NCBI GenBank assembly: GCA_016872875.1
Contig: VGYW01000462.1
Span: 1-6,309 of the forward strand
Reading direction: 5' to 3'
From: Planctomycetota bacterium
GTDB lineage: Bacteria; Planctomycetota; PUPC01; DSUN01
Length of the DNA stretch: 6,309 nucleotides
Shown here one piece after another: positions 1 through 6,309 of this stretch. Position 1 is the stretch's first letter; each line of letters starts with the position of its first letter. A program made the translations under genes and the position numbers. Under the pieces are notes generated by a model. That model was not told where the DNA came from, did no database searches, and saw only the letters and a list, made by a program, of their open reading frames with translations.

Positions 1-1070
1 AGGCCGCTCAGCTCGACCCGCTGCTCGAGCGTGCCGGCCCAGGCGGAGGCCAGCTCCTTGATCCGCGCGGCCTTGGGGTCGATCTGGCGGAAGAGGTCGG
101 GCTTGGCCGCGCGCTCGTCGGGCGTGGCGAACTCGCTGTGGCCGCAATAGTCGGCCCACAGGCGCTTGCCGGTCATCTTGTCGAAGCAGATCACGAACGA
201 CGGGTCGGCGTTGACGACCAGGCGGTCGCCGATGACGAGGGGCTGGGCGCAACTGAATCGCGGGGCGTTGGGCAGGCTCGCCTCCCAGAGGATGCCCTGC
301 GACTCGGCCTGCTCCTCCGGGGAGCGCCCCCAGAGGACGACCTGGAAGAAGCCTGAGTTCTGCGGCAGGTTATACATGTCAGCCCAGTTGTCGGCCCGCT
401 GGCTGGTGAAGACCTTCACGAGCAGGCTGTTCCAGCCCTTCTGGAGGTCTACTTCCTTGTCGGCGAACCGCAGCTCCTTCTCGTCGGTCTGGTGGACCGG
501 CTGGCCGTTGAGCCAGAAGCGGCAGGTCGGTCCCATCAGGCGCATCATCAGCCGCCCGCCCTCGTGCGAGTGCAGGTAGGCGTGCGCGTAGAAGACCTTG
601 GCCGCCATATCCGGGTAGTGGGGTTTGAGGTTGAGGAGCGACCCCGTGGATGCGACCCTCTTCCACTCGGCGCCGCCGGCCTTCTCCCCTGCATCCGGCC
701 GCAGCCCCGCCTCGCCAGGGACGGATTCCTTGGCGAGCAGCTCGGCGGTCTCCGCCTTCGGGTCGTAGGGGAAGGGGCCGAGGACGAGCCACTCGGGGAT
801 GTTCCCGAGGGCGGCCGGGCTGGACCCCGGACGCGCGCCAGCCGGCCCCGGCCCGAGCGAAGTCGAGGGCTTGGCCGCCTGGGTGGTCAGCCCCTTGAGG
901 GTCGCCGAGATGCGGCCCCACTTCACCGGCGGGTCGGCGTTCGGGAACAGCCCCGTTCCGTCGCCCCGCCAGCCCCACGAGGCCGGCACCTGGCCCGCGG
1001 CCGCCGCACCGGTAAAGAGGGCGACGCACCCGAGCGCCACGACGACGCCGCGCGTGACGGATGAGTTCAT
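1..1070 (-). CDS. Secreted PQQ-like beta-propeller protein with N-terminal jelly-roll-like domain (partial, C-terminus beyond the left edge)
   Basis: The minus-strand frame is open from an ATG at 1070 to base 1, giving 356 complete codons with no stop, so the gene continues outside the window. Residues 1-26 form a signal peptide ending in an alanine run. Residues 33-51 carry G-W-R-G-D-G-T-G followed by N-A-D-P-P-V-K-W, shared with the upstream neighbour. Residues 92-250 resemble the beta-sandwich domains that begin W-L-V-L-G-P-F and contain F-W-L-N-G and K-G-W-N-S-L-L-V-K, probably ligand-binding. From 258 a first PQQ-like blade appears (I-L-W-E-A-S-L, then C-F-D-K-M-T-G-K-R-L-W). The start overlaps the upstream stop as ATGA, with a GGGGA ribosome site at 1077-1081, six bases away, so the two are translationally coupled. 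Residues about 61-90 are a Pro/Gly/Ser/Ala-rich linker containing a dispersed-repeat-like palindrome. No CXXCH haem motif or vicinal Cys pair is visible, so an enzyme role is unsupported. Confidence 0.88.
   Translation of the reverse strand, partial: MNSSVTRGVVVALGCVALFTGAAAAGQVPASWGWRGDGTGLFPNADPPVKWGRISATLKGLTTQAAKPSTSLGPGPAGARPGSSPAALGNIPEWLVLGPFPYDPKAETAELLAKESVPGEAGLRPDAGEKAGGAEWKRVASTGSLLNLKPHYPDMAAKVFYAHAYLHSHEGGRLMMRLMGPTCRFWLNGQPVHQTDEKELRFADKEVDLQKGWNSLLVKVFTSQRADNWADMYNLPQNSGFFQVVLWGRSPEEQAESQGILWEASLPNAPRFSCAQPLVIGDRLVVNADPSFVICFDKMTGKRLWADYCGHSEFATPDERAAKPDLFRQIDPKAARIKELASAWAGTLEQRVELSG
851..870. repeat. Dispersed palindrome-like repeat inside the coding sequence
   Basis: The 20 bases GCCCGAGCGAAGTCGAGGGC form an imperfect inverted repeat (GCCC/GGGC arms). 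From memory they match a repeat common in GC-rich environmental bacterial genomes, CCTGAGCGAAGTCGAAGG. Relative to that form, the differing outer pair changes T-A to C-G, so pairing is kept. It lies in frame within a Pro/Gly/Ser/Ala-rich linker (residues about 67-74) of the left-edge beta-propeller gene. Only one copy is seen in this window, so repetitiveness cannot be shown here. Confidence 0.45.
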
Positions 1071-2308
1071 TGGGCTTCCCCTTTGGCTATGCAGTAGAGC
1101 TTGCGGCCACTGCGAAGGAACATGGACTTCCCGGCGAAGGTCGGCGTGCTGCCCGTGCCCGAGCCGAGGCGGTTCCGGCCGACCTGCTTGAACGTCCTGC
1201 CGGGCTGGAGGACAAGCGTGTCCCCGCGGTCGTTGCCCACGAAGAGCAGGCCGCCGGCCAGGCACAGGCTTGAAAGGACCATTGCGTTGCCCCCGCCGCC
1301 GCCCCCCTCTTCGGCCGGCGGGATCGGCAGCGGATGCTCCAGCACTATCTCCCCCGTGCGGGCGTCGAGCACATAGTACGTCGCTCCGTCCGCCACGGTA
1401 TGAACCAGCCCCTCGTGAGCGACCGGCGAGGCATAGAAGTGGCCATCCGGGGCCTGCGACCACGCCTGCCTGGGCTGAAACGGCTCCGCCTTCTCGAGCA
1501 GCTCGGCCGCCTTGGCCACGGAATCCATGAAGAATGCCGTCTTCCCCAGCACGACCGGGCTGGCATAGTTGAGGCCCCCGAGGCCGCGCGCGAGGAGCTT
1601 CCCATCCTCGACCCGGACGACACACCCGCCGGGTGTGATCGCCACGTCCTGGCCGCCCAGGCGCTCCACGAGCGGCGTCCCGTGGCCCTCCACGGCCTCC
1701 GTGACTTTCCACAGCACCTCGCCCGCCTTCGCGCTGAGCGCGGTGAGGCATCCCATGTGAACCAGCAGCCTCTCCCCCGCCAGGACCGGGGAGGCGCTGC
1801 GGCCGTCCTTGCTCAGGGGCCGGATGCCAAACGCCTTCACCCACGCGCGCCGGCCCTCGAAGTCGTAGCAGGCCACCAGGCTGCTGGCGAACTCGACGTA
1901 GACGTGCGTCCCATCGGTGGCGGGCGTGGGGGCCGCATTGCCGCTCCCGAACTTCCCCTCGACCACGTCCTTGGCGGCCTCAGCAGGGATCTGCCCAGCC
2001 CCGTGCCCGCGCCGCCACAGCTCCTTCCCGCTCGCCGCGTCCACGCAGACCAGGACGTCCGGCTCGACGCTGACGAAGACTCTGTCGCCGCTCACAACGG
2101 GCGAGGAGAAACCATCCCCCACGTCGGCGGCCCAGCGCACGTTCTGCTTGTCGCTCCAGACTATGGGCGGCTGGGCGTTCCGATAGACTCCGGAGCCATC
2201 GCCGCGCCAGCCCGATACAACGGGCTCCGCGGCTCCGCAGGCTCTTCCCAGAAGGACCCCGAGGGCTAGGCCCAGGTCCCATGCGAGCGACTGCGTCCGC
2301 AGCACCAT
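1067..2308 (-). CDS. Secreted PQQ-like beta-propeller repeat protein
   Basis: This 413-residue protein opens with an N-terminal export signal (hydrophobic residues about 9-25, likely cut near A-C-G-A-A). A G-W-R-G-D-G-S-G motif with N-A-Q-P-P-I-V-W follows at 33-51. After that come repeated blades with the PQQ-like pattern: S-S-P-V-V-S-G-D-R-V-F-V then D-A-A-S-G-K-E-L-W (68-98), T-P-A-T-D-G-T-H-V-Y-V (128-138), A-S-P-V-L-A-G-E-R-L (172-181), Y-A-S-P-V-V-L-G (248-255), Y-A-S-P-V then D-A-R-T-G-E-I (292-321), and a last blade at 380-408. A run of six glycines (335-340) sits between blades. Quinone dehydrogenases of this fold are much longer and usually have a vicinal Cys pair, absent here. A binding or scaffold role like BamB-type propellers is more likely, but no substrate can be named. 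GAGGA lies only two bases before the ATG; GTG at codon 2 is a possible alternative start. It is first gene of the minus-strand unit. Confidence 0.92.
   Translation of the reverse strand: MVLRTQSLAWDLGLALGVLLGRACGAAEPVVSGWRGDGSGVYRNAQPPIVWSDKQNVRWAADVGDGFSSPVVSGDRVFVSVEPDVLVCVDAASGKELWRRGHGAGQIPAEAAKDVVEGKFGSGNAAPTPATDGTHVYVEFASSLVACYDFEGRRAWVKAFGIRPLSKDGRSASPVLAGERLLVHMGCLTALSAKAGEVLWKVTEAVEGHGTPLVERLGGQDVAITPGGCVVRVEDGKLLARGLGGLNYASPVVLGKTAFFMDSVAKAAELLEKAEPFQPRQAWSQAPDGHFYASPVAHEGLVHTVADGATYYVLDARTGEIVLEHPLPIPPAEEGGGGGGNAMVLSSLCLAGGLLFVGNDRGDTLVLQPGRTFKQVGRNRLGSGTGSTPTFAGKSMFLRSGRKLYCIAKGEAQ
1290..1306. repeat. C-rich low-complexity tract encoding polyglycine
   Basis: A plus-strand run of C and GCC units encodes six consecutive glycines in the 413-residue propeller on the minus strand. 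It falls in a predicted loop between blades. The run of six C is a plausible slippage or sequencing-error site, but the frame is intact across it. Confidence 0.6.
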
Positions 2309-2409: not shown

Positions 2410-2434
2410 GGCATGCCCGGGATGCTTGCATGCC
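2410..2434. promoter_or_regulatory. Candidate operator: inverted repeat GGCATGC-N11-GCATGCC
   Basis: Seven-base arms at 2410-2416 and 2428-2434 are exact reverse complements separated by 11 bases. Because GCATGC is itself palindromic, the arms also read as direct repeats with centres 17 bp apart. The left arm lies within a perfect 10-bp palindrome, GGGCATGCCC (2409-2418). The right arm overlaps the putative -35 box of the plus-strand promoter, and the site sits between the two divergent promoters, a natural place for a regulator to bind. No regulator gene is in the window. Confidence 0.3.
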
Positions 2435-2814
2435 ACGGGCGGGCGCGTACAATCGTCGTCGGCGAGTTGAGGAAGGACTGGTTCGACGGCGACCCCGAAG
2501 GCGGCCTCAACCTCTACCTACGCTGGGAGACTAGCGACCTTGTGGATGAGCCTGGCCGCTGGGAAGTGACCGCCTTCCTGACCGGTGGGCAGGGAGGGGC
2601 GCCCAAGGAGGAGTGCATGGTGGACCTCACCCCGCGTCGCTGCCAGAAGTTCAAGGCGGCCCCCGGCGGCCAGTTCCGGTGGACTAACACCTCGCTCGCT
2701 GACGGCAAGGTTGTCCAGTCCGGTTCCGCCACGTCCGACAAGTGGGGCATGGTCACACTGGACAAGCTCACCGTGACCAAGGGCAAGAACCGCGTGAGCA
2801 TCCAGAAGCCATAG
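2413..2814 (+). CDS. Conserved-looking hypothetical protein, possible 5'-truncated remnant
   Basis: I do not recognise a named family. The frame stays open back to 2281, but that would overlap the divergent gene's start. GC-rich third positions, a sign of real coding here, begin only near 2452. Possible starts are ATG 2413 (used here), ATG 2422 and TTG 2467 (115 residues). The convincing part begins R-K-D-W-F-D-G-D-P-E-G-G-L-N and continues through W-E-T-S-D-L-V-D-E-P-G-R-W-E-V-T. A C-terminal stretch follows with V-D-L-T-P-R-R-C-Q-K-F, F-R-W-T-N-T-S-L, W-G-M-V-T-L and V-T-K-G-K-N-R, which looks like an all-beta domain. Unlike every neighbour whose N-terminus is in the window it has no signal peptide, and it reads like the tail domain of a longer secreted protein that lost its front. 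It lies 11 bases before the kelch gene and probably shares its transcript. A genuine small cytoplasmic protein remains possible. Confidence 0.6.
   Translation: MPGMLACHGRARTIVVGELRKDWFDGDPEGGLNLYLRWETSDLVDEPGRWEVTAFLTGGQGGAPKEECMVDLTPRRCQKFKAAPGGQFRWTNTSLADGKVVQSGSATSDKWGMVTLDKLTVTKGKNRVSIQKP
2426..2453 (+). promoter_or_regulatory. Possible promoter of the plus-strand operon
   Basis: TTGCAT (2426-2431) and TACAAT (2448-2453) are spaced by 16 bases. The -10 matches at five of six positions; the -35 matches only in its first three. Transcription would start near 2460. If used, it excludes ATG starts at 2413 or 2422 for the first gene and leaves TTG at 2467, with a leader of only about seven bases. 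The promoter therefore conflicts with the simplest ATG start, and one of the two calls is wrong. Confidence 0.35.
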
Positions 2815-2818: not shown

Positions 2819-2825
2819 ACCTGAC

Positions 2826-4148
2826 ATGGAGCGGAGAGTGTTGACCCTGTCGCTTCTGGCGGGAGCTGCGATGGCGGCCGGGTCGGCCCCGGCCGCCGGC
2901 CAACCGGCCCCCGAGCGCAAGGGAGTGCTCGCGGGCCTGCCGAGTCCGCCAGGCCCGACCATCGGGAAGATCAAGGCGCTCGGCGACAACGAGTGGCTGA
3001 ACCTCGGCCCGCCCGCGCCCGACCCCAAATGGGGGAAGGCCCGGGGCCGCTCCTGGAGCGCCAAGATGCCCTACGCCGGCGACCTGGGCGGCGCCTTCCT
3101 CAACGGCCAGGGCGTCCACGGCTACATCAAGCCTGACGGCTACTTCATGGACGACATCTGGTTCTACGACCTCAACGGCCATCGCTGGATCTGCCTCTAC
3201 CCGGGAACAGACACCCGGAGCTTCGTGGAGAACATCAAGAAGGGCGAGCTGAAGGTCAACGACGACGGCCAGTTGGTGGACAAGGAGGGCCAGCCGGTGC
3301 CCTTCTCGGCCATCGCCGGGCACAGCTATCAAGCCCACACGTATGACCCCGACCTCCGCAAGTACGTCTTCGCCGGCGGTGGGGGCGGCATCGGCAACGA
3401 GCAGCACGTCAGAGACCAGGAGTGGTGCAAGAAAGGCCGGGAGCTGCTCGCCCAGCAGGGCAAGGCCGACAAGGTGGCCGGCGCACCCTACTACTTCAAC
3501 ACCGTCACGGGCAACTTCGAGCGCCCCCCGCTCGGGGCCGGCTTCGGCGGAGTCCTCTTCTACCTGCCGGGCAAGAAGGCCCTCTGGGCCTACGCCGGGG
3601 GTGGGGTGACGCTGCTCGCCGACCCGGCCACCCACAAGCGCGCCGACGCCGGCGCCAAGGGGCCCACCCCGCAGGGCATTGATTTCGGGGCCTGCTACGA
3701 CCCCAAGCGCGACCGCATCTGCGTGGGCGGAGGCTCATACCGCGGGCCCTACGGCAAGGACGAGGGCTTCGTCTACATCTACGACCCCAAGACCAATGCC
3801 TGGTCCAACCCGCCGAACAAGGAGCACGCCATGCGCTGGCCCGGAGCCAACTACTGCTGCGTCCACTACGACGCGGCGGCTGATCGGGTGCTCTGCCTGT
3901 TCGGCTGGTGCATGGACCCCAAGAACCGGGGCATCTCCGCCTACGACCCGGAGGCCGGCGCCTGGGACGCCCCGCTGCCGATCCCCGCCGAAGTGGTCTC
4001 CCACTGCGTGCACGGCTTCTACTCCCCGGAGGTCAACGCCCACTTCATCTACACCGCCGGCGACAGCGACGACCGCGGCACGATGTGGGTCTATCGCTAC
4101 AAGCGCGGGACGCTTCCTGGGAGCGCGAAGGAGGAGAGCAGGCGATGA
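2826..4148 (+). CDS. Secreted kelch-like (galactose-oxidase-type) beta-propeller protein
   Basis: The protein has 440 residues. Residues 1-25 are a signal peptide (M-E-R-R, a hydrophobic core, then A-P-A-A-G). Kelch-like blades follow, each pairing a Y-D-P-type strand with glycine turns and an aromatic strand: W-F-Y-D-L-N-G-H-R-W (112-121), Y-D-P-D-L-R-K-Y-V-F-A-G-G-G-G-G (173-188), Y-F-N-T-V-T-G-N-F (223-231), L-W-A-Y-A-G-G-G (253-260), Y-D-P-K-R-D-R-I-C-V-G-G-G (291-303) with Y-I-Y-D-P-K-T-N-A-W (317-326), Y-D-A-A-A-D-R-V-L-C-L-F-G (348-360) with A-Y-D-P-E-A-G-A-W (372-380), and a last blade at 399-426. A charged segment (about 133-160) and a lysine-rich helix-like segment (192-218) interrupt the pattern. 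No catalytic radical site can be assigned, so a binding role is more likely than an oxidase. Its stop overlaps the next start as ATGA, suggesting matched production of the two proteins. Confidence 0.88.
   Translation: MERRVLTLSLLAGAAMAAGSAPAAGQPAPERKGVLAGLPSPPGPTIGKIKALGDNEWLNLGPPAPDPKWGKARGRSWSAKMPYAGDLGGAFLNGQGVHGYIKPDGYFMDDIWFYDLNGHRWICLYPGTDTRSFVENIKKGELKVNDDGQLVDKEGQPVPFSAIAGHSYQAHTYDPDLRKYVFAGGGGGIGNEQHVRDQEWCKKGRELLAQQGKADKVAGAPYYFNTVTGNFERPPLGAGFGGVLFYLPGKKALWAYAGGGVTLLADPATHKRADAGAKGPTPQGIDFGACYDPKRDRICVGGGSYRGPYGKDEGFVYIYDPKTNAWSNPPNKEHAMRWPGANYCCVHYDAAADRVLCLFGWCMDPKNRGISAYDPEAGAWDAPLPIPAEVVSHCVHGFYSPEVNAHFIYTAGDSDDRGTMWVYRYKRGTLPGSAKEESRR
4129..4134 (+). promoter_or_regulatory. 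Ribosome binding site of the TPR-FMN_bind gene
   Basis: AGGAGG, a near-perfect Shine-Dalgarno sequence, lies inside the end of the kelch-like gene, ten bases before ATG 4145. It supports that start, which yields an intact signal peptide, over the in-frame upstream start at 3908. Confidence 0.75.
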
Positions 4149-5107
4149 CGAATCCACGTGCTGGGCTGCCGCGACGGCTCCTGCTGCTCGCGGTCCTCGT
4201 CGCCGCAGGACGCCCGCTCAACGGAGGCGAGGCACAGAGGCCATCATTGAAGGAGGCGCTCGCCCAACTCAGGGACCCGCCGCCGTGGCTCGAGTCGGTC
4301 TCCGTTGACTTCGACACCTCGAAGCCCTGGAACAAGGCGTGGGACCGCATCGAGCAATTGCTCTTCACGGCCGACCCCGCCGACCGCAGGAAGGCCGTCA
4401 AGCTGGCCTATGTCTACCAGAAGGAAGGAAAGGCCAGGGACGGGCTCCCCGCCGCGACCTACTTCCTGGCAGGCGAGTACGCCTGGGCGCTGGTGGAACT
4501 CCAGAAGCTGGCGAAGAAGGACAGCGGCGCCTGGTCCAGGAGCGCCTCGTGCTACCGGCACTTCGGCGAGCACCGCAAGGCGCTCGATGCCCTCGCGGAA
4601 GCGCTGAAGTCCCTGCCCGACCCGCCCTGGGCCTCCTTCGCGGAAGCGGGCATTCTGGCCGCTAGAGGCGACATCTGCGCCGAGTTGGGCGACGCCGCTA
4701 AGGCGAGGGAATCCTATCAGCGGGCCATCCAGCGCTACGAGGGGAGCAAGCTCCCCAACGATTCCCAACTCCTCATCCGGCGAAACGTCGAGCGGGTGGA
4801 GGCCCGCCTGGAGCTCCTCGAACGCTCCGCGCTCAAGTCAGCCCGGCTCAAGGACGGCACCTGCACGGGCACGGCGTTCGGCTATTCGGACAACATCCTC
4901 GCCCGGGTCACCATCGAGCGAGGCAGGATTGCGGACATTCAGCTTGAGCACAAGGAGCGGGCCGACCTCGGGGCAAGGAGGATACTGCCCGAACGGATCA
5001 TCGCCAAACAGGGCCTGGAGGTGGACGGTGTGACCGGCGCCACCGTCACCTCCCAGGCCATCGAGACGGCGGTCTTCCGGGCGCTCAGGAGAGCCGCCGG
5101 CATGTGA
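4145..5107 (+). CDS. Secreted TPR-repeat protein with C-terminal FMN_bind domain, predicted covalent flavoprotein
   Basis: The protein has 320 residues. The N-terminus shows L-P-R-R followed by a leucine-rich core and a likely cleavage after G-G-E-A (about residue 30), so it is exported. Residues about 63-225 are helical with TPR-like hairpins: A-V-K-L-A-Y-V-Y-Q-K-E-G, A-S-C-Y-R-H-F-G-E-H-R-K-A-L-D-A-L-A-E-A-L, and G-D-I-C-A-E-L-G-D-A-A-K-A-R-E-S-Y-Q-R-A-I. Residues 236-316 match FMN_bind (Pfam PF04205). They open with K-D-G-T-C-T-G-T-A-F-G-Y, continue with V-T-I-E-R-G-R-I-A-D-I, and end at D294-G-V-T-G-A-T300-V-T-S followed by the usual A-I-x-x-A-V-x-x-A-L helix. D-x-x-[S/T]-G-A-T is the ApbE acceptor motif seen in NqrC and RnfG, where FMN is joined to the final threonine, here T300. 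A role as an extracytosolic electron carrier is inference; no transmembrane anchor beyond the signal is seen. The neighbouring kelch protein is the natural candidate partner. Confidence 0.93.
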   Translation: MTNPRAGLPRRLLLLAVLVAAGRPLNGGEAQRPSLKEALAQLRDPPPWLESVSVDFDTSKPWNKAWDRIEQLLFTADPADRRKAVKLAYVYQKEGKARDGLPAATYFLAGEYAWALVELQKLAKKDSGAWSRSASCYRHFGEHRKALDALAEALKSLPDPPWASFAEAGILAARGDICAELGDAAKARESYQRAIQRYEGSKLPNDSQLLIRRNVERVEARLELLERSALKSARLKDGTCTGTAFGYSDNILARVTIERGRIADIQLEHKERADLGARRILPERIIAKQGLEVDGVTGATVTSQAIETAVFRALRRAAGM

Positions 5108-5416: not shown

Positions 5417-6309
5417 TCAGGGGGTGACAGTGACCTTCACGGAGGCCATGCGTTCAAGGATGCTGTCTGCGGCACGGAGTGTGACGGTGTATCGCCCCGG
5501 CCGGGCGTAGGTGTGGGTGACGGCCGGGCCGTAGGTGATCTCCGTGTCGTCGCCGAAGTCCCAGGCTGCTTGAGGGCGCTCGGGGCCGTCGGGGTCCGAG
5601 ACCGTGCCCTTGAGGGTGAGCGCCCGACCCGCCCTGGCGGTGATCTGGGCCGGCCCCTCGATGGTCGCCACGGGGGGCTGGTTGGCTCTGACCGGCTCGG
5701 TCTTGAGGCAGTTCAGCGCCGTCAGGCTGTCCAGCGGCACGGCCCGCGGATTCTCCGACTTGTGGATGAGGATCATCATGCTGTCGCCCCGCAGGCTCCA
5801 GGGGTCCGCCGGGTCGTGCGCCCGGAGGTTCACGCCGCGGGCCGCTGTGCCGTTGAGGGGGAGCTTGCCTGTCTCGACCCGGCAGACGAAGCGCTTCGTC
5901 TCGCCCGGCTGGAAGACGGGGGTCTCAAGCCCGAGTTCAGCCTCCCCGGCATCCACTGCGCCGTTCGCATTGGCGTCGAGGTAGATGCCCCGGCCATCCC
6001 AGGCTGGGACCTTGGCGAAGGCTGCGAAACGCGAAACCCAGTAGGAGCAGGGCTTGGTGCAGGTGTGTGTGACCTGGAAGGGCACTTCCACGGAGGACTG
6101 GTTAGGGGGAATGGCGAGACGGGCTACCTTGCGAGCAGGGTTGTAGCGGACATCCACGCCCGGCTCCTCCCGCCAGACGCGGAGCTGGTCAATCCCGAAT
6201 CGGGGGGCGGCGTACGAGTTGGCCGTCGCGCCCCAGCCCCGTTCCACCACCGTGTACCAGCGGCTCAGGGTGTCGAAGTACCGGGCGTCCGTGTCCTGGA
6301 GCGGCTCAT
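5417..6309 (-). CDS. Exported-type protein with EF-hand-like calcium loop and C-terminal PKD domain (partial, N-terminus beyond the right edge)
   Basis: The minus-strand frame is open from the right edge to TGA at 5417-5419, giving the last 296 residues. The GTG at 6250 lies inside a continuing frame (preceded by F-D-T-L-S-R-W-Y-T) with no ribosome site, so it is not taken as the start. Numbering from the edge, residues about 40-190 form an unrecognised beta-rich region with a C-T-K-P-C pair (83, 87). That region contains D111-A-N-A-N-G-A-V-D-A-G-E122, which fits a 12-residue EF-hand or dockerin-type calcium loop at positions 1, 3, 5, 6, 8, 9 and 12. Only one such loop is seen, whereas dockerins have two. 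Residues 211-296 are a PKD domain: P-P-V-A-T-I-E-G, D-P-D-G, W-D-F-G-D-D, and T-H-T-Y-A-R-P-G-R-Y-T-V-T-L. PKD domains are extracellular binding or spacer modules often ending secreted hydrolases. The catalytic or main part lies outside the window, so the function is unknown. Confidence 0.88.
   Translation of the reverse strand, partial: EPLQDTDARYFDTLSRWYTVVERGWGATANSYAAPRFGIDQLRVWREEPGVDVRYNPARKVARLAIPPNQSSVEVPFQVTHTCTKPCSYWVSRFAAFAKVPAWDGRGIYLDANANGAVDAGEAELGLETPVFQPGETKRFVCRVETGKLPLNGTAARGVNLRAHDPADPWSLRGDSMMILIHKSENPRAVPLDSLTALNCLKTEPVRANQPPVATIEGPAQITARAGRALTLKGTVSDPDGPERPQAAWDFGDDTEITYGPAVTHTYARPGRYTVTLRAADSILERMASVKVTVTP

What the first reader, a model, noticed from the sequence alone, without database searches (positions are those of the whole stretch)
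4145..5107. Exported TPR plus FMN_bind fusion with an intact covalent-flavinylation motif
Residues 294-300 read D-G-V-T-G-A-T, matching the D-x-x-[S/T]-G-A-T motif that ApbE uses to attach FMN through phosphoester linkage to threonine in NqrC, RnfG and related proteins. Here the domain is fused to a TPR array behind a signal peptide, not to a membrane complex subunit. That suggests a soluble or envelope-associated flavoprotein recruited by protein contacts. Its coupling to a kelch propeller is, to my knowledge, not a described system.
Basis: partly seen in the sequence, partly recalled or inferred. Interest (0 to 1): 0.7.

Follow-up and report, generated by a model that had tools for sequence, protein, structure and literature searches.

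The report
TPR-tethered flavin electron carrier protein
This is an exported bacterial protein that probably carries a covalently attached flavin and passes electrons outside the cell membrane; relatives in other genomes often sit next to a membrane electron-transfer partner, whereas its neighbour here, a kelch protein, looks like a local arrangement.

Summary
The ORF at 4145-5107 encodes 320 residues: signal-peptide-like start, TPR solenoid, C-terminal FMN_bind domain (Pfam E 3.8e-11) with D294-G-V-T-G-A-T300. T300 is kept in 45 of 45 aligned rows that reach the site, the window's included. The domain matches CbFMN4 domain 1, whose threonine carries FMN.

The interpretation shifts. In 24 of 31 full-length copies counted in other genomes, the next gene downstream is a membrane iron-sulfur protein that looks like NapH (quinol dehydrogenase) fused to NapG. 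So it is most likely a detached FMN subunit of the 'NapH-like' flavinylated systems of Meheust et al. 2021, with a TPR domain that I saw in no paper searched. ApbE is in 27 of 28 of those genomes, but also in 122 of 149 Planctomycetota drawn at large: permissive, not telling.

The kelch link is real here (ATGA overlap) but absent from the 29 family loci searched; the window's own branch has no other intact context to check. The window's genome is not held, so its apbE and NapHG are untested. New variant of a known kind.

The parts
4145..5107 (+). CDS of the TPR + FMN_bind protein (320 aa)
   Evidence: AlphaFold2 model mean pLDDT 90.5
4145..4228 (+). probable signal peptide, residues 1-28 (cleavage site guessed by eye)
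   Evidence: hydrophobic stretch from residue 12; low-confidence N-terminus in the model
4328..4837 (+). alpha-helical TPR solenoid, residues 62-231
   Evidence: Pfam TPR models; helices in the model; Foldseek TPR matches
4856..5095 (+). FMN_bind domain, residues 238-317 (three strands, two helices)
   Evidence: PF04205 E 3.8e-11 at 246-314; 8p2b_A TMt 0.80, rmsd 2.1
5024..5044 (+). flavinylation motif D294-G-V-T-G-A-T300; T300 is the predicted FMN acceptor
   Evidence: aligned with the SGAT of 8p2b
2823..4148 (+). kelch-propeller protein, exported-looking by eye, same operon
   Evidence: Kelch_1 21.8 bits against 20.1; model pLDDT 90.8; kelch-propeller matches
4145..4148 (+). ATGA overlap: start codon of the TPR-FMN gene and stop codon of the kelch gene
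   Evidence: sequence read
2416..2814 (+). small ORF upstream of kelch, possibly the first gene of the operon (start uncertain)
   Evidence: no Pfam match at E 1

Best explanation
The protein is an exported electron carrier. A signal peptide takes it across the cytoplasmic membrane, an ApbE flavin transferase attaches FMN through a phosphoester to T300, and the TPR solenoid docks it to protein partners. In the family at large the electron donor is most likely a membrane NapH-NapG fusion that oxidises quinol and passes electrons through its iron-sulfur clusters to the FMN; the flavoprotein then delivers them to exported acceptors that are not identified. In the window's lineage the gene is not beside that partner and is co-translated with a kelch protein, which may be a docking partner or simply a neighbour. 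Shown: domains, motif, conservation, neighbour genes and ApbE in relatives. Inferred: flavinylation, quinol as donor, direction of flow, TPR docking, and presence of apbE and NapHG in the window's own genome.
For: FMN_bind and TPR profiles. T300 kept in 45 of 45 A1 rows that reach the site, D294 in 44 of 45, the window's row included (P0043 stops short; P0047, a short FMN_bind hit, was left out of A1). In 29 ORFs read from genome loci the acceptor T is kept in 29 and the full D..[ST]GAT in 24. The best solved relative by sequence is 8p2b (E 1.3e-9, GAT on GAT), flavinylated on Thr67 (PMC10339131 passages). NapHG directly downstream on the same strand in 24 of 31 full-length copies, 23 of 28 genomes, with a 4-base overlap of the called ORFs in 7 of the 24 (L003, L004, L005, L006, L102, L104, L111). 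The two halves match NapH and NapG models in 3 of 3 proteins scanned, below the curated cut-offs; [ST]RR plus a hydrophobic stretch lies between them in 12 of 12. Of the 5 genomes whose copy has no adjacent NapHG, 4 have one elsewhere, G1158's being weak. ApbE in 27 of 28 genomes, beside the cluster in G006, G011, G182 and G1106.
Against: No NapHG lies in the window; a convergent PKD gene begins 310 bases downstream. Of the 33 close-branch rows only the window has a readable intact context; the G006 relative of that branch is damaged, and the next copy there carries an in-frame TAG in its signal-peptide region. The window's genome is not held. ApbE is nearly as common at large: 122 of 149 phylum genomes against 27 of 28 (p 0.038). 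NapHG-like proteins are far commoner than TPR-FMN (2874 hits against 47) and their base rate per genome was not measured, so 'NapHG elsewhere' is weak. Five of 29 genome ORFs depart from the motif. No acceptor was identified.
Confidence: 0.58

Rival explanations
1. Kelch and TPR-FMN form a dedicated two-protein redox system of this lineage: the kelch propeller is substrate or target recognition, the FMN the redox centre.
For: ATGA overlap implies co-translation here. In one draw of 392 Planctomycetota genomes, 3 of 5 with TPR-FMN also have the kelch family against 11 of 387 without (p 3.5e-4). The window's own branch could not be checked.
Against: No kelch match in 29 family loci. 0 of 25 kelch places, in 14 genomes, has the TPR-FMN or NapHG gene in the fetched flanks, but only 5 of the 25 are in genomes with a TPR-FMN gene. 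In the 3 shared genomes the genes lie on different contigs or far apart. The model matches ordinary kelch propellers; no oxidase is named among the 50 rows shown. Co-occurrence may reflect shared ancestry, and only 4 or 5 candidates per genome were scored.
Confidence: 0.17
2. The window's protein is an orphan flavoprotein paralogue served by another donor (another NapH-like, PepSY or DsbD-type protein), independent of NapHG.
For: The close branch is separate (98/90); six other copies have no adjacent NapHG downstream (L010, L014, L018, L106, L107, L108).
Against: Four of those five genomes encode a NapHG elsewhere; L107 has one about 2 kb upstream on the same strand.
Confidence: 0.18
3. The FMN_bind domain is a vestige or binds FMN only loosely; the protein works as a TPR scaffold without redox chemistry.
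For: I know of no experiment on it; motif departures in 5 of 29 genome ORFs.
Against: D294, G298, A299 and T300 unvaried in 33 of 33 close rows; ordered domain in the model; ApbE in 27 of 28 genomes of relatives, though it is common at large.
Confidence: 0.06

Closest known systems
NapH-like flavinylated electron-transfer systems (Meheust et al. 2021, PMC8238504; outline with abstract and sections 8 and 9 read)
   Same: A membrane NapH-like iron-sulfur protein with a separate FMN-binding-domain gene (539 of their 2465 clusters) in flavinylation gene clusters.
   Different: The FMN domain is fused to a TPR solenoid and the NapH-like protein to a NapG-like ferredoxin. A word search of the main text found no 'TPR', 'tetratricopeptide', 'kelch' or 'planctomycet'. 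In the window the NapH gene is not adjacent.
CbFMN4 / SaFMN3 multi-flavinylated proteins (PMC10339131, passages seen; 8p2b, 8p2a)
   Same: Same single FMN-domain fold and motif; CbFMN4-D1 carries FMN on Thr67.
   Different: They are strings of FMN domains; here one FMN domain follows a TPR solenoid.
RnfG / NqrC subunits
   Same: FMN_bind domain with a D..[ST]GAT-type motif; weak RnfG match (E 2.8e-4).
   Different: RnfG score 21 against a cut-off of 102; no Rnf/Nqr genes among the window's ORFs scanned.
Planctomycetota kelch-propeller family
   Same: The neighbour at 2823-4148 is a typical member (266 hits, 120 listed).
   Different: The 25 relatives located in genomes are not linked to TPR-FMN genes.

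Membership tests
FMN_bind (PF04205) | Profile score above the curated cut-off | tested here: met
   43.9 bits against 22
FMN_bind (PF04205) | D..[ST]GAT acceptor motif, conserved | tested here: met
   Residues 294-300; T300 45 of 45 rows, D294 44 of 45
FMN_bind (PF04205) | FMN-domain fold | tested here: met
   8p2b_A TMt 0.80, rmsd 2.1 A, 35% identity; model pLDDT 90.5
FMN_bind (PF04205) | Covalent FMN on the threonine | not testable with these tools
   needs mass spectrometry
NapH-like flavinylated system | NapH-like membrane iron-sulfur protein encoded nearby (family level) | tested here: met
   24 of 31 full-length copies; NapH and NapG models matched below curated cut-offs in 3 of 3 scanned
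NapH-like flavinylated system | NapH-like gene near the window's own copy | tested here: not met
   none in 6309 bases; genome not held
NapH-like flavinylated system | ApbE in the genome | tested here: inconclusive
   27 of 28 genomes of relatives against 122 of 149 at large; window's own genome not held
RnfG/NqrC | Score above the family cut-off | tested here: not met
   rnfG 21 against 102 bits
TPR proteins | TPR profiles above cut-off and helical solenoid | tested here: met
   TPR_2 33.2 against 27, TPR_1 28.8 against 27.8; helices 62-231
   no kelch match in 29 family loci
   no other intact close-branch context was reached

The most novel reading that the evidence does not exclude
PVC-superphylum bacteria have a modular envelope redox system in which a fused NapH-NapG quinol dehydrogenase hands electrons to TPR-docked, FMN-tethered carriers that stand in for the cytochromes NapC/NapB. 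Duplicated carriers (as in G006, G182 and G506) have been released to new exported partners, a kelch propeller in the window's lineage.
Probability: 0.28. Interest if true: 0.62.

Novelty: new variant of a known kind. Interest (0 to 1): 0.42.

Why it matters
It gives an uncharacterised exported flavoprotein family a testable place: a quinol-to-periplasm branch that uses flavin on a protein-docking scaffold where cytochromes might be expected. It also shows that the unit to study first is TPR-FMN plus NapH-NapG, and not the kelch pair.

Tried and rejected
Kelch as a conserved partner: tested through kelch places in 392 genomes, their flanks and the family loci; no linkage. A comparison of contig lengths between the protein lists showed no shared length, but it fails its own control: the window's truly linked pair has different listed lengths (10985 for P0001, 3313 for P0048), and only 120 of 266 kelch hits were shown. 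I give it no weight.

The same comparison for NapHG gave one shared length (5271; P0041 and P0182) with 120 of 2874 hits listed; it says nothing about the close branch.

Kelch as a redox enzyme: structure predicted and compared; ordinary kelch propellers rank first among the 50 rows shown.

ApbE as support: the phylum base rate, obtained last, is 122 of 149; against 27 of 28 the difference is p 0.038. I had counted ApbE as stronger evidence before this.

Search for a genome of the window's close branch, E <= 1e-30: phylum 5 of 392, class of G008 7 of 397, class of G156 1 of 9, class of G005 2 of 198, order of G006 5 of 245, family of G006 2 of 14 (query P0023); no full-length match to the window's protein above 46% identity. 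The draws overlap, and in the four larger ones only 5 to 11 candidates per genome were scored. Viral contigs: none.

Gene order as one event: the tree needs 6 changes of the NapHG label, and 103 of 500 shuffles were as low; no claim about a single gain or loss.

Recurring acceptor: 9 flanking proteins scanned and some. Gfo/Idh/MocA oxidoreductases occur at L010 and L106, and relatives of the L010 one by clustering at L006, L007 and L008; such proteins are, as I recall, abundant in these phyla, and I did not test this. L110 has a COX4/cytochrome c gene shortly upstream. Not pursued.

Rows dropped: of the 80 loci I counted 16 as full-length relatives; the other 64 matched mainly the FMN_bind end in that table and most were not examined (L070 and L024 were looked at and dropped).

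Odds changed on checking: best explanation 0.62 to 0.58 and novel case 0.30 to 0.28 (ApbE base rate; stop in the second G006 copy), kelch rival 0.15 to 0.17 and orphan rival 0.17 to 0.18.

Full report
What is there. The ORF at 4145-5107 (+) encodes 320 residues. Pfam finds FMN_bind at residues 246-314 (E 3.8e-11, 43.9 bits against 22) and TPR repeats before it (TPR_2 E 4e-8). Shuffling the protein gives such a motif in 16 of 20,000 trials. The AlphaFold2 model (mean pLDDT 90.5, pTM 0.83) has helices from 35 to 231, then three strands (238-268) and two helices (277-288, 300-317), T300 beginning the last. The N-terminal 24 residues are almost all below pLDDT 50, as a cleaved signal peptide would be; the most hydrophobic stretch begins at residue 12.

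Is the motif functional? Of 46 rows in A1, 45 reach the site (P0043 does not); T300 is kept in 45 and D294 in 44, the window's row included. Among 29 ORFs from genome loci the acceptor T is kept in 29 and the full D..[ST]GAT in 24; the departures are N for D in L003, TAAT in L011 and one L109 copy, SSAT in the other L109 copy, and VGAT in L112 (three later loci, L115, L118 and L119, were not read for this). The best solved relative of the FMN part is CbFMN4 domain 1, 8p2b (profile E 1.3e-9, GAT aligned on GAT; Foldseek TMt 0.80, rmsd 2.1 A). Passages of its paper say that both crystallised domains were fully flavinylated, with FMN on Thr67 of CbFMN4-D1 (PMC10339131).

Relatives and their neighbours. 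The protein search gave 46 homologues besides the window's, 45 of them at E 4e-54 or better and one short FMN_bind protein at 6e-12; only the 7999 candidates sharing most words were scored. From the genome scans I counted 31 full-length copies in 28 genomes outside the window: Planctomycetota, Verrucomicrobiota, Kiritimatiellota and Sumerlaeota among those with names. In 24 of 31 copies, and in 23 of 28 genomes, the next gene downstream on the same strand is one conserved protein (529-613 residues as called in 12 sequences), with at most 232 bases between the aligned ends and a 4-base overlap of the called ORFs in 7. One more copy (the first of L110) lies in the same cluster with the second copy between. 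The copies without it are L010, L014, L018, L106, L107 and L108; L107 has one about 2 kb upstream on the same strand. Of the five genomes concerned, four encode it elsewhere: G010, G156, G596 and, more weakly (292 bits), G1158; not G1159. Its base rate at large was not measured.

What the partner is. In 3 of 3 proteins scanned the N-terminal half matches NapH models and the C-terminal half MauM/NapG models (L005: TIGR02163 E 4.8e-23, TIGR00397 E 5.5e-22), all below the curated cut-offs. Four C-x2-C-x2-C-x3-C motifs and 30-33 cysteines occur in each of 12 aligned sequences, and [ST]RR followed by a hydrophobic stretch joins the halves in 12 of 12. I read it as a NapH quinol dehydrogenase fused to a Tat-type NapG ferredoxin, an inference from profiles and motif.

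ApbE. PF02424 is found in 11 of 12 genomes (not G012) and 16 of 16, so 27 of 28. The base rate in a draw of the phylum is 122 of 149, so the excess is slight (p 0.038; the 28 genomes are from several phyla). Seven of 14 named control genomes also have it. It adjoins the cluster in G006, G011 and G182 and in G1106 (coordinates), which ties it to the system better than presence does. In G182 the order is ApbE, TPR-FMN, NapHG, second TPR-FMN, second NapHG.

The window's own branch. In the tree the window lies in a branch of 33 rows (98/90) apart from the branch holding most NapHG-linked copies; a third, distant branch has four NapHG-linked rows of six (several long branches are flagged). No genome with an intact member of the 33-row branch was reached. 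The one foothold is G006 (Verrucomicrobia): a damaged copy, 83% identical to P0023 over residues 163-323, lies directly upstream of a second TPR-FMN copy and NapHG. That second copy has an in-frame TAG in its signal-peptide region, its open frame starting after it. So this branch can lie beside NapHG; whether it usually does is open.

The kelch neighbour. It is real, and the ATGA overlap makes co-translation likely here. No kelch match lies in the 29 family loci, 2.5 to 20.9 kb long. Of 25 kelch places in 14 genomes, none has the TPR-FMN or NapHG gene within the fetched flanks of about 1.5 kb or less, and five larger regions agree; but only 5 of the 25 are in genomes that hold a TPR-FMN gene. 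At genome level 3 of 5 TPR-FMN genomes also hold the kelch family against 11 of 387 others (p 3.5e-4), on different contigs or far apart; shared ancestry may explain it. The kelch model (pLDDT 90.8) matches ordinary kelch propellers.

Mechanism. Established knowledge: ApbE attaches FMN to the threonine of this motif, and NapH/NapG carry quinol electrons towards the periplasm. Meheust et al. [quoted passage not shown] The TPR-FMN protein fits as that separate subunit, with TPR repeats for docking. Donor, direction and acceptor are inferred for this family.

Literature. Searches of the open PMC library for flavinylation, ApbE, FMN-binding domain, TPR, tetratricopeptide, planctomycet, kelch and NapGH showed no title or abstract start on a TPR + FMN_bind protein among the papers listed: 20 of 44, 0 of 0, 12 of 40, 15 of 97, 10 of 90, 8 of 36. 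Word searches of two main texts found neither TPR nor tetratricopeptide, kelch or planctomycet (PMC8238504; PMC11334425). Subscription journals, preprints and supplements were not searched.

Verdict. A sound observation of a conserved, probably flavinylated carrier. A new variant of a known kind.

Noticed in passing
window 1067-2308 (-) and about 108-1000 (-): A PQQ_2/BamB-like propeller protein (E 1.1e-20), and beside it a second ORF with a weak match to it (34% over 67 residues), divergent from the kelch operon.
   Followed up: partly
window 5417-6307 (-): C-terminal part of a PKD-domain protein (PKD_4 E 3.6e-15) converging on the TPR-FMN gene.
   Followed up: no
window 2416-2814 (+): Small ORF ending 8 bases before the kelch start, no Pfam match; possibly the first gene of the operon.
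   Followed up: no
P0077 and P0163: Kelch relatives of 694 and 678 aa that carry sigma-70 factor domains: a sigma factor fused to this kelch family, or an assembly or gene-call artefact.
   Followed up: no
L109 (G182): Duplicated unit: ApbE, TPR-FMN, NapHG, second TPR-FMN, second NapHG on one strand; both TPR-FMN copies depart from TGAT (TAAT, SSAT) while keeping the threonine.
   Followed up: partly
L006 9370-10882: Damaged, N-terminally incomplete TPR-FMN copy of the window's branch next to a second copy with an in-frame TAG in its signal-peptide region.
   Followed up: partly
L110 6518-7378 (G506): COX4/cytochrome c gene shortly upstream of a tandem TPR-FMN pair.
   Followed up: no
L146 856-1287 (G156): A 71% identical C-terminal kelch piece with no match to the N-terminal part on the same contig.
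   Followed up: no
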